Origin: Clytia hemisphaerica
Lineage: Eukaryota; Cnidaria; Hydrozoa; Leptothecata; Clytiidae
Length of the DNA stretch: 64,000 nt
Assembly (NCBI GenBank): GCA_902728285.1
Contig: CACVBU010000930.1
Span: 646,567-710,566 of the forward strand
Direction: 5' to 3'
A model generated the notes under the pieces. It was not told the origin of the DNA. It saw only the letters and a program-made list of their open reading frames with translations, and did no database searches. Positions 9,801 to 15,800 of the stretch are shown here, piece by piece (the first letter of the stretch is position 1; each line of letters starts with the position of its first letter). The translations under genes and the position numbers were made by a program.

Positions 9801-12800
9801 GTCGACTTAAACGGCCTCTATACGCGCTCCTTTTACAGTATGGGTAACTCATAGCTTAAAGATGGCTGACAGCGGGTACAAAAAGTGAGTTTCGAAAATT
9901 ATCACTAACAATCATATTGTTTGTCCAGTTTTATTAACTTTGTGAAATCTGATTAATTACCCCATAGTGTTTATCACATAGTACCCTAAGTATCTTTGTA
10001 TTGCCTGAATTCTATTTGTTGGTACTTTTAATGAATTTTCGATTTTCTTATTATAAAGAAATCTAGTCGATTATAAAAAAATTCGACAATGAAACTCATA
10101 TAGATGCAATTGCGAGGATATCGCAATTGGCCGTAAAACACCGGAAAACATATACCGCAAATTCATGATATTCTCAACTCTATTATTCCTGAACGCCCTC
10201 TATTTCCACCACGCTCTTTTTCAGTAATCCACCCAATAATACCATTGGAAACACCTTCCTAGACCTTGGTCAAAAGATTTATTTGGACATCAACATTGAG
10301 GCAACAAGCAGTGTTCAATATAACATCTCGTGGGGTGATGGCAAAGAAGATTCCAAGCTTCAGGTATTTATTCAATATAGAATTCCGCAGGGAATTTCCC
10401 TTCTGTCCACTATTTCTCTCAGTTTGAACCACAAGTGATTTTGTGGTTTAGAGATGCTGGCTAAATCGATCTTGCCAGGCAGGGTGCAGTAAGCAGTGCT
10501 GGCGAGTCCTGTCGAGCAGTGCTGCTTTGCCACCCAAATCTCCTGAGTGAATATAGTTAGACAGAAATTCTTATTTCTTTGCATATATAATGCATACTTT
10601 GTGGAAAGGTATTCTGACCACTGCCCAAAATACCTCTCTATGCTCAAAATCACAGTTTTAATGTTATTTTCCAAAAGGTGAAAAATTCAATTTCACCACG
10701 TAATAAATACCCTTTAAATAAACAAAGTGTCTTATTTACAAAAAAAATCTATATAGTTTCAAGTAAACATTATTGGTTCTATACAGGAAATCATTAAACC
10801 GTTCAGACTACACCACGTTTATACTCAAAAAGATAGTTACACCATCACTGTGTTGGCATCAAACGGAATAAAATCATTATATAACTCAATGACGGTGGAA
10901 ATCAAAAGTTGTGTACCGACTATACATGCGGAATCTAGTTCCGCAGAATTACCATTACTCTTGACTGTTGGTACAGAGAATTTTGTTAAATACATGTACC
11001 AATATGAGAAAATAGAGTGTGAAAAATCTTCCTCAAAATTTCTCAAAGTGCAACAAACACGATTGTTCGGTGAGGAGTCTGGGATTGAAATCTTAAATGC
11101 AGGTAATATTTAGGTCTGTCTCACTATAATTTGCAGTTGATACAAAAAAGGCCATAACTTTTGATAGAATACGAATTATTAGATAGCGGCTTTGTAGTTT
11201 AGTCTGTTAGACCAAAATATCATAACAATACTTCAGTTTGTGAAAAAAGCATGAAACTTGGCACAGACATGCACAATTATAATCTGAACAAAAAAATTGA
11301 CAGAGACACGTCTGAAAACCACGTGACTGCTGACGTCAGCACTTTTTTGCTGACGTCATGAAAATTTTTTTAAGGTGTCCAAACCATCAAGTATTATATA
11401 CTATTGGAAAGGAAATTTAATTCTGAACAACTTTTTTGCTTACAGTTTTTTCTGAAAACGAAGCCAAAAAAAGTTACAAGCTTCTGAAGTTGACTTGTGA
11501 CGTCATCAAAAATTGTCAAAAAATTTATAGTTACAAATCCCCAAGTATTATATACCGTTGGAAAGCAAATTTCATCCTGAACAACTTTTTTGCTTACAGT
11601 TTTTCGTGAAAATAAAGCTAATAAAAGCTATTGACTTTGTTTTGCAGCATGGTTCACAAATCACAAAACTTGGGGTAGAAAACTGATAGATGGCTAGAAG
11701 ACGAAAGAGGATGCTTAAATGCATCTTTACTTGCTTCTTTTCTAAAATGTTAGGAAAACATTGCATTGCTGTAGAACAGAACAGATTAGAAAACATTGCA
11801 TTGCCTCAAAAAGTGTTCGTTGTTTTTGGAAGGAATCAATTTGCACACGTGATATGAAGTATTTTAAAGTATTATAGAATCTTGCTAGTAGCATGTTAAA
11901 AAATTACAAGTCAAAAGACTAACGGACCCTTGAGAATAGCATTTTTGTTTCTTTTGTTTCACTTTTTATTGATTATAAGTATATCATATGATCGGGTTCT
12001 TACTATCGAGAACAATATTACTAAAACGATATGTAAAAAATATTGCGAGGAAAAGAAAGTACTACCACCATCCTTGCAGCCTGGCGAATTTTTCGTTTCT
12101 GCCATCGACAACATGGACAATGGTCCGAAATCAAATATGGCAAAATCATCTTTCATGGAACAACAATATCCATTTTCCAGTTCTTATAATCCAGCACATC
12201 CACACGAACAGCGTTCAAATACACGGAAGATCACAGTACAGTAGATATATCTTTGCCTGAGTCGTACACAAACACTCTACAAACCAAGAATTACAAAGCA
12301 GAACCATTTGATAGAAAAACTTCAACCAACCCCATCAGCGAGTGCTCTAAACAAACAAAAGTTCAACCTTGGGTGGACAAAATTTCAACAGCTCCAATGG
12401 ATACAGAAAAGCTAGATGATCGGGTGTCATTATCTGCCTTTTTTGGAAGACAATCGGTGACGTCCATGGCAATAACCATATCATGTCTCCTCCCACTTAA
12501 GGACGAATCAATCAACTCGACAGCCATGGTCCGTCATTGCATCGAAATTGTCCAAAGCATCACTTACTCTCTAAACCCTGGTCAAAAGGTTATCATCACA
12601 ACGGATCAACCAGTTTTTACGCATTGGGGAAGCAGGTGCAGTGGATGTACAACGACAGATACAGTGATGTCATCTGGATGATGGGTCCTCTGCACATCGA
12701 AATCTTTCATGAGAGATGGTAAAAACAAAACGGAGCTCTTTGAATTGCTTGCCGACAATTTTCTAACGATCAAACATCCGATAATTGTATCTACTAAAGG

Positions 12801-15800
12801 GAACGGTGTAACATCAAATTTATTGCAGACTGTCGATCGAATCAGTCCTTCGAACCATGAAGAAGCGGACACGCACATTTTCAAGCATATTTTCGATGGT
12901 CGGCAGCATGGCTACAAAAATTTCCTGATTGTGATAGTAGACACCGACGTTATTGTGATCGCACTCTACCATTTCTTTTCCATTGGTGCCGAAGGGCTAT
13001 GGGTTGAGTTTGGTGTTGGAATAAACAAAAGGTACCTCATTTTATATTGATACTGGTTTGTTTTCTTTTTTTTTACTATCCAATGAAATACTTTATTCCT
13101 ATTGAGGAAATACTGTACGTTCTTTAGAACCTCGAGTTGGTTGTTGTTGCTTATTCTATAAGAGCCTGACTGATTTTTTTAAGGTATTACGCAATTCACG
13201 AATACGCTAAAGCTTGTGGTTTACATTCACTGGTTGCGACACCGTTTCAATGTTCGCTGGTCGAGGCAAGATCACCGCATGGAATGTATGGGATGTGTAT
13301 CCAGATGTGACTGGAGCTTTTGTGAGATATTGCAGATTCGTAATGTACTTAATTCTATAGAGTAGAGAATGATGATGAAATCCGATCTGCCTCTAAGTGT
13401 TCGAGAAATCGAGCAACAAGATTTTGATCTGATCCAAAGATACGTTGTGTTGTTGTATGATCGCGCTAGCCCATACACCAACGTCAACTCTTGTAGGCGA
13501 TTGCTATTTACAGTGAAGGGCAAGGATATTGAACAAATGCCACCGTCGGAGGATGCTTTGATGCAGCATTTACTTAGAGCTATTATTCCTGGTCTGTTTT
13601 AATGAAATCTAAAAAAGAATCTTTACTATACAAATTCTGTTAAGCTTTGAAAAATGTAAAGAAATAGCATTTGACCTTTGATCCGTATTTTAAAAGAATG
13701 ATTTATCGTATTATACTTCCGATTTCCAGAATCTGGTGTAATGCTTGCAGTGCTATGCTACCCGAACTCGACTTCGAAAAGTGGGGGTGGGTACTCACGA
13801 ATTTGTACTACGAGCCAAGGTGGACAACCCTCCCAGAGGCATCTAAAGCTTGTAAGGAGCTCATCCGCTGCGGGTGTAAAAAAGAGTGTACACGTTTTTT
13901 TTTATTAGAACACCTAAAGTTTGAGTGAGCCTGGATGTGCTTATTTTTTTAGCAATTCTCAGCCTAAAATGTTCTTAAATGTGTTCTTAATTTTTAGACT
14001 ACTCTAAATCAACAATATGATACAAAATAAAGAGCACTTAAATTTGGCAAAATTTGGACAATATTTTGAAGATCCACCCCTAAATTCGGTTAAAACTGCT
14101 TAAAAAGAGGAAAAAATTGTTGTTTCTTGTCATTTTTTTCCAAACCGAGGCTGGGCATGTTCTTAAGATGTTCTTAATTTTTCGACGAATTTCAGCCTAT
14201 ATGTTCTTATAAACTAGGTTCTAATAAAAAAAACGTGTACTGGACGTTGTAAGTGCAAAGAGGCCAACCTTCCTTGCACAGAATTGTGTCATTGCAGTGG
14301 TGGTTGTGCAGTATAGCAACTAATTATTCTGTATATTTTATGATCGTGAAAATTTTTCTACCTAGTCTGAAATTATTTATCTCTTTATTTTTCATTGCGT
14401 CAGGGTATCTTTAATATCGAGGTTAGTATATCACTAAGCCTATTAGTATTGTTTTCCATCTGTTAGTTTAGTTTTGAAGGAAAAATAATAGCGAAAAAGT
14501 AAGGTTTCTTGGCGTAAATATTTTAATTGGTAGAAAGATACTGACTATTTTTGAAATAATGTCGTCTAGTTTTTATTGAATAGTTTTCATAATAAATATA
14601 AGCCAAAAGTTATTCAGCATGAATTTTCCTTTCCAGCTTTATATACTGTAATTCATGAGAGAATCTTTTGTAACTATAAAATTTTTGATGACGTCACAAG
14701 TCTTCTTTAACTTATTTTCATGAGAAACTGTAAGCAAAAAAGTTGTTCAGGGTGAAATTTCCTTTCCAACGGTATATAATACTTGGGGGTTTGTAACTAT
14801 AAATTTTTTGACAATTTTTGATGACGTCACAAGTCAACTTCAGAAGCTTGTAACTTTTTTTGGCTTCGTTTTCAGAAAAAATTATAAGCAAAAAAGTTGT
14901 TCAGAATTCAATTTCCTTTCCAATAGTATATAATACTTGATGGTTTGGACACTTTTAAAAAATTTCCATGACGTCAGCAAAAAAGTGCTGACGTCAGCAG
15001 TCACGTGGTTTTCAGACGTGTCTCTGTCAATTTTTTTGTTCAGATTATAATTGTGCATGTCTGTGCCAAGTTTCATGCTTTTTTCACAAACTGAAGTATT
15101 GTTATGATAAGCCACTGGACTATTGTGCTTGTTGAAAAGACAAACATATTATTATCATAAATAAAAAACTCAAAAAATATTGGAAAATGAACATTGAAAA
15201 TGAAGAATAAGAAAATCAACTTTTTCAATAATTATATAATCATCATTTTCACACGAGTGATTCTTTGATCTTAGAGCATCATTAATGTGAAAAAAAAATT
15301 CAAAGAAATTTATTACATCGAAAGATATAGACCAAAGTTTATCACTGATTGACTTCAAAAACCATCAAAAAAGTTAGCTTTTTCCTTTGTTAATATCAAA
15401 AGATAAAAATCGATTTACTCCGTTACCAAGTACTCCTCTTGGGATTGGTTTAAAAATGAATCACATGATCACAAAAAGTGAACAAAACAAACTAATTTCC
15501 CAACGCAAGTTCAATTAAGAAACAATGGAAAGAAACAAAAAGCTTCCAGACCGGGTTTTTTTATACGGACTATGGTAATATTAAGTCAATACGTCTATAA
15601 ATTCTTTAGTCACGAGCAAGCAAGGTGAAAGCACTCTCATTCAGCATATGTACAGGGTGTCCCGAAAAAAAGTATCGAGTTCGAACATGATTCTGAGTAG
15701 ATGGTTGTTGAGTGTGTTTAACAAAATGTAGGAAAATATATACCAACACATTAATAATTTTTACAACAGTCATCATGATTAAAAATATTTAACTTTCTTT

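What the first reader, a model, noticed from the sequence alone, without database searches (positions are those of the whole stretch)
11930..14316. Transposon-borne broken gene with FEN/XPG-like spacing and a Cys-rich CxC tail
Seen: EEADTHI, then VDTDVIVIA, then [19 protein letters not shown], then a terminal RCKCK...PCTELCHC tail, between ~400-bp inverted repeats. Known: XPG/FEN nucleases have EA..A/DxD acidic motifs followed by a GCDY..GIGxKxA helix-hairpin-helix. Inference: this dispersed invertebrate family may be a PIN/FEN-like nuclease used by a DNA transposon, rather than a DDE transposase.
Basis: partly seen in the sequence, partly recalled or inferred. Interest (0 to 1): 0.7.

Follow-up and report, generated by a model that had tools for sequence, protein, structure and literature searches.

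The report
Broken transposon with a FEN-like nuclease
This is a decayed copy of a cut-and-paste transposon in what is probably an animal genome; its better-kept relatives there look like one protein joining a DDE-type transposase half to a flap-endonuclease-like half, a pairing that resembles a transposon kind already named in the literature (Academ), so it is interesting but mostly ordinary.

Summary
A 3,928-bp element (window 11195-15122) has 398-nt inverted arms (97%), a 3-bp target duplication (TTG), and a broken multi-exon gene with the reported motifs and Cys tail. It is internally deleted and non-autonomous, yet a 99.5% copy sits elsewhere with another duplication (TTA), so the broken copy moved too. 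The genome has 67 matches to one 122-aa piece, the window's own included. Of 20 places fetched with 10 kb, 10 lie between long inverted repeats. Relatives carry FEN/XPG-like acid motifs in order. A profile comparison with bacterial FEN nucleases (E 0.0039; 0 of 400 shuffles as high) aligns motifs 3-5 only; phage FENs alone gave no support. No fold could be predicted. TSD length and nuclease fit the Academ superfamily, lineage AcademX (one passage read; the rest recalled). No Academ sequence was compared. Probable new member of a known kind.

The parts
11192..11194 (.). 3-bp target-site duplication TTG, left copy
   Evidence: ends fixed by alignment to copy L059, whose flanks differ
15123..15125 (.). 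target-site duplication TTG, right copy
11195..15122 (+). whole element, 3,928 bp, both ends beginning TAGT
11218..11615 (+). left inverted arm, 398 nt
14712..15109 (-). right inverted arm, 97% complementary to the left
11975..12704 (+). remains of the N-terminal (transposase-like) half in three frames, up to MMGPLHIE
   Evidence: tblastn with the 784-aa frame of L060, E 2.2e-37
12700..13047 (+). nuclease piece with EEAD and DTD motifs; follows directly on the previous piece, residues 86-572 of the L062 frame being absent (FEN motifs 1-2 and the third DDE-like acid lost)
13032..13183 (+). probable intron (GT...AG), read by eye
   Evidence: sequence; inference
13211..13330 (+). [19 protein letters not shown] piece (fifth acid and a helix-hairpin-helix-like turn)
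13405..13599 (+). C-terminal piece (...VVLLYDRAS...[15 protein letters not shown])
   Evidence: tblastn with the 359-aa frame of L066, E 2.4e-22
13686..13886 (+). C-terminal piece ending at the first Cys pair (CGC)
13888..14240 (.). nested insertion with its own short inverted ends, splitting the Cys region
   Evidence: I16, I21; lies within the alignment of copy L059, 14 gap positions in 3,936 columns
14242..14307 (+). Cys-rich tail GRCKCK...CTELCHC.GGC
   Evidence: tblastn match with L066 at 14227-14310; intact tails in relatives

Best explanation
A non-autonomous, internally deleted copy of a cut-and-paste DNA transposon. Autonomous relatives most likely encode one long protein: N-terminal Cys/His fingers that bind the inverted repeats, a DDE-type (RNase H-like) transposase core, then a FEN/XPG-like structure-specific nuclease and a CxC zinc-binding tail. 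Inferred mechanism: the DDE core cuts and joins the ends, leaving a 3-bp staggered target; the FEN-like domain trims or cuts a branched or flapped strand at the ends during excision or gap repair; the tail helps bind DNA. Shown: inverted repeats, 3-bp TSDs, a moved broken copy, the conserved acid sets of both halves, and profile similarity of nuclease motifs 3-5 to bacterial FEN. Inferred: both folds, both activities, DNA binding and the division of labour. Closest published kind: Academ superfamily, AcademX lineage.
For: 67 matches at E <= 0.01, the window itself included. Inverted repeats of 179-558 columns, 73-98% identity, flank 10 of 20 fetched places. Exact 3-bp TSDs in 7 of the 11 elements with two arms, window included; none has a 4-bp one. 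The broken copy moved: window and L059 are 99.47% alike over the element, share the deletion and the nested insertion, but have different flanks and TSDs TTG and TTA. By a loose pattern all five nuclease motifs lie in one open frame in 5 of 24 loci (L062, L071, L074, L075, L080) and four of five in 4 more (L069, L070, L077, L078); the window has 2. EEAD is invariant in 12 of 12 rows; the two D of DTD and the D of GCD reach 90%. hhalign against 10 bacterial FEN rows: E 0.0039, score 29.64, in register at EEAD, DTD and GCD; 0 of 200 column and 0 of 200 block shuffles as high, best 24.8. T5-like against T4-like nucleases: E 0.011 (labels mine; 2 rows against 1, so not like for like). N-half acids: D 6 of 6, D 5 of 5, D 13 of 13 with E 12 of 13 rows that have a letter there. 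PMC10045372 passage: AcademX makes 3- or 4-bp TSDs, AcademH 9 or 10, which it relates to the nuclease and helicase they encode.
Against: No XPG/FEN match: Pfam on 7 window pieces and 7 relative frames, NCBIfam on 4 frames, PDB with profile A1. XPG_I finds 3 other places in this genome and none of the fetched copies. Against 5 phage FENs alone the profile gives E 0.38, against T5-like 0.12, T4-like 0.13. Bacterial against phage FEN sets give E 1.6e-39, so this family is far more remote. The alignment covers motifs 3-5 only; motifs 1-2 rest on reading. HHsuite probabilities are 2-9%. Ten of 20 fetched places show no long flanking pair in 10 kb, though in L066 a 46-nt pair flanks the gene with its left arm at the locus start and may be cut. 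The DDE reading rests on conserved acids that I picked; one search lists other conserved D and E columns too. No Academ sequence was compared.
Confidence: 0.74

Rival explanations
1. The FEN-like nuclease is itself the transposase: it cuts the element ends, and the N-terminal half only binds DNA.
For: The acids are among the most strictly conserved residues of the nuclease half, beside a few K, L, A, H, G and C.
Against: The N-half keeps its own conserved acids D, D, DxxxE; a fixed short TSD is typical of DDE joining (general knowledge); Academ is listed among DDD/E superfamilies (passage).
Confidence: 0.08
2. A captured host or viral gene carried as cargo, unrelated to transposition.
For: Cargo genes occur in some transposons (general knowledge).
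Against: The nuclease half runs on in one open frame from N-half motifs in L062 (746 aa), L076 (1241 aa), L077 (749 aa) and L078 (777 aa).
Confidence: 0.05
3. A transposon kind other than Academ, for example an undescribed superfamily with the same domain pairing, or a KDZ-like element with a CxC tail.
For: No Academ sequence could be compared; weak Pfam DUF6589 matches (E 1.9e-4 and 2.9e-5, both below the curated cut-off) name no superfamily.
Against: TSD length and an encoded nuclease fit AcademX (passage); XPG type is recalled.
Confidence: 0.12

Closest known systems
Academ superfamily, AcademX lineage (Kapitonov and Jurka 2010; Kojima 2020; neither read, recalled)
   Same: DDD/E superfamily (passage); TSD of 3-4 bp and an encoded nuclease (passage of PMC10045372); that the nuclease is XPG-type is recalled
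   Different: Only 3-bp TSDs seen here; the window copy is broken and deleted; no sequence comparison with Academ was made
FEN/XPG structure-specific nucleases (PolI 5'-nuclease, T5 exonuclease, FEN1, XPG)
   Same: Order of five acid motifs; GxGK turn after the last; motifs 3-5 align with bacterial FEN
   Different: No match by Pfam, NCBIfam or PDB sequence search; CxC tail; fused to a transposase-like half
Kolobok lineages with accessory nucleases or helicases (PMC9587614, passages)
   Same: DDD/E transposase plus an extra nuclease in one DNA transposon
   Different: Other nuclease folds (PD-D/ExK, His-Me finger, DEDDh)

Membership tests
Academ (AcademX) | Target-site duplication of 3 or 4 bp | tested here: met
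   3 bp in 7 of 11 elements with two arms; L063 gave none, L067 and L074 ends unclear, L076 cut by the locus end
Academ (AcademX) | Encodes a nuclease (passage; XPG type recalled) | tested here: met
   At motif and profile level only; fold and activity untested
Academ (AcademX) | DDD/E transposase of the Academ type | tested here: inconclusive
   Conserved D, D, DxxxE; no Academ reference available to compare
Academ (AcademX) | Terminal inverted repeats (recalled as usual for the group) | tested here: met
   Window and 10 of 20 fetched places
FEN/XPG nuclease superfamily | Acid motifs in order, with a helix-hairpin-helix after the last | tested here: inconclusive
   Acid order met in alignment A3; motifs 3-5 in register by hhalign; motifs 1-2 by reading; the helix-hairpin-helix is inferred from GxGK
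FEN/XPG nuclease superfamily | Sequence match to curated XPG/FEN profiles or solved structures (a detection test, not strictly defining) | tested here: not met
   No XPG/FEN hit in Pfam, NCBIfam or PDB
FEN/XPG nuclease superfamily | PIN-like fold | not testable with these tools
   structure prediction switched off
KDZ transposons | KDZ transposase domain | tested here: inconclusive
   No KDZ family among Pfam matches of 7 relative frames at E <= 1; no KDZ sequence was compared

The most novel reading that the evidence does not exclude
A FEN-fold nuclease is an essential catalytic partner in eukaryotic transposition, cutting branched end intermediates, and may make one of the two strand cuts itself; this family, with several long-frame copies between inverted repeats in one genome, would be a system in which to test it.
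Probability: 0.15. Interest if true: 0.6.

Novelty: new member of a known kind. Interest (0 to 1): 0.3.

Why it matters
If the nuclease works in transposition it would show how cut-and-paste elements recruit repair-type nucleases for their ends. It also gives a likely function to a repeated protein family of this genome that the Pfam and NCBIfam scans did not name beyond weak, sub-threshold DUF6589 matches. That the family is widespread in invertebrates is recalled, not tested.

Tried and rejected
Chance motif matches: rejected, because other copies match the 122-aa piece down to E 2e-77 (the window's own match is 5e-79) and the pieces match relatives in order. Relatives in viruses or prokaryotes: 74 viral stretches matched peptide patterns and none was confirmed by tblastn; degenerate GCDT patterns gave 14 and 1 viral and 21 genome stretches, whose translations I judged unrelated by eye. 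A FEN-motif pattern gave 39 viral stretches; not all gave a frame of 60 aa, and those printed showed no FEN by eye. An ERCC5-like host exon (named by its PDB match) gave no plasmid match. PDB search with profile A1: 0 hits.

Literature: searches (9 of 10 used). Not held: Kojima 2020, Yuan and Wessler 2011. Seen as passages only: PMC10045372, PMC3424704, PMC10294476, PMC10799480, PMC4455052, PMC9587614. PMC12730594 was opened for terms and gave no passage. The 3 searches that held both 'Academ' and 'XPG' as terms (without XPG, 97) listed no paper that I saw to describe the XPG nuclease of Academ. That link is recalled, not read.

Rows and choices: the 20 places are my choice out of the 67 rows (mostly the best rows plus some long frames), not a random sample. 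L133 (stop after 25 aa) was dropped from the FEN reference, leaving 10 bacterial and 5 phage rows; several FEN loci were first read on the wrong strand, corrected. TSDs were counted only where both ends were clear (7 of 11). The phage-only FEN comparison did not support the link.

Full report
What is there. The window holds a DNA transposon at 11195-15122 (3,928 bp) with 398-nt inverted arms at 97%, both ends beginning TAGT, and a 3-bp duplication TTG. The ends were fixed by a second copy, L059, 99.47% identical over the element but with different flanks and the duplication TTA. That alignment runs through the same deletion and nested insertion with 14 gap positions in 3,936 columns, so the broken copy itself has moved, presumably with enzyme from a better-kept relative (inference).

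The gene. Pieces matching relatives run in order from 11975 to 14310 on the + strand, in changing frames, with a probable intron at 13032-13183 (by eye) and a nested insertion near 13888-14240. The 746-aa frame of L062 matches at residues 11-85 and then from 573, so 487 residues have no match. In L062 that stretch holds the third conserved acid of the N-half and the first two acid motifs of the nuclease half. This copy cannot encode a working protein.

Relatives. The genome (417 Mb, 951 contigs, unnamed; probably an animal by its MATH, PKD-like and ERCC5-like exons) has 67 matches to the 122-aa piece at E <= 0.01, the window's own included; the tool calls such counts lower bounds. I fetched 20 places with 10-kb context, chosen mostly from the top of that list, and 4 more with about 3 kb. 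Inverted repeats of 179-558 columns and 73-98% identity flank the gene in 10 of the 20 (L059, L063, L064, L067, L069, L070, L072, L073, L074, L076). Of the other 10, L066 has a 46-nt pair around the gene with the left arm at the locus start, possibly cut; 9 show no flanking pair. With the window that makes 11 elements with two arms. Both ends were clear in 7, all with an exact 3-bp duplication and none with 4 bp (window TTG, L059 TTA, L064 TTA, L069 CAA, L070 TAG, L072 TAA, L073 TTA). L063 gave no duplication, L067 and L074 ends were unclear, L076 was cut by the locus end.

Protein. Long frames of relatives (L062, L074, L076, L077, L078, L080) show an N-terminal half with conserved Cys and His columns and the acids D (6 of 6 rows with a letter), D (5 of 5) and DxxxE (D 13 of 13, E 12 of 13); other conserved D and E columns exist and the choice of these is mine. 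The C-terminal half has DG, FDxY...SLK, HEEAD, DTDV and GCD...GxGK in the order of FEN nucleases and ends in a Cys-rich tail. In 12 rows EEAD is invariant; the D of DTD and of GCD reach 90%. By a loose pattern all five motifs occur in one open frame in 5 of 24 loci, four of five in 4 more. In L074 the two halves are in two separate frames (996 and 548 aa); in L062, L076, L077 and L078 they share one.

Test of the FEN reading. The reference holds E. coli polA, nine bacterial PolI-type 5'-nucleases and five phage FENs. hhalign of 12 transposon rows against all 15: E 0.021, score 24.5; 0 of 150 column and 0 of 150 block shuffles as high (best 22.2), and reversed alignments score 12.7-13.2. Against the 10 bacterial rows: E 0.0039, score 29.6; 0 of 200 and 0 of 200 (best 24.8). 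The alignment pairs EEAD with VEADD, DTD with DKD, and GCD...GKKTAW with GDSSDN...GEKTA. Yardsticks: T5-like against T4-like nucleases E 0.011 (2 rows against 1), bacterial against phage FENs E 1.6e-39; PolI 3'-5' exonuclease region E 0.93; transposon N-half (2 rows) against FEN E 0.34. Against phage FENs alone the transposon nuclease gives E 0.38, against T5-like 0.12 and T4-like 0.13, so support comes from the bacterial set. Pfam, NCBIfam and PDB sequence searches found no XPG/FEN match. Motifs 1 and 2 were matched by reading, not by hhalign.

Mechanism. Most likely the N-half cuts and joins ends as a DDE transposase, and the FEN-like half acts on branched strands at the ends during excision or repair; this division is inferred.

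Known or new. A passage of PMC10045372 says that in the Academ superfamily AcademH makes 9-10 bp and AcademX 3-4 bp duplications and relates this to the helicase and nuclease they encode; a passage of PMC9587614 lists Academ among DDD/E superfamilies. That the AcademX nuclease is XPG-type I recall; the source paper is not held. The features tested agree with AcademX, but no Academ sequence was compared, so I call it a probable new member of a known kind.

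Noticed in passing
window 51411-53393 (-): 661-aa open frame with a reverse transcriptase domain (RVT_1, E 7e-8), Penelope-like by eye, lying between 99% direct repeats 9.66 kb apart (48431/58089 and 49058/58717).
   Followed up: partly
window 42456-43715 (-) and 10757-11110 (+): MATH/TRAF-like domain (E 7e-18) and a weak PKD-domain match (E 0.0059, below the curated cut-off), probable host gene pieces.
   Followed up: partly
window 13888-14240, 16434, 34558, 47212, 47405: The nested insertion in the Cys region resembles, by eye only, repeats elsewhere in the window rich in AAGAACA/TGTTCTTAA words (D16).
   Followed up: no
L120 (G000 C649:1744596) and L077 (C649:1754800): An XPG_I match with seven in-frame stops lies about 10 kb from a long-frame relative of the transposon; not explained.
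   Followed up: no
window 35057-35600 and 1-325: Long 8-bp tandem arrays.
   Followed up: no
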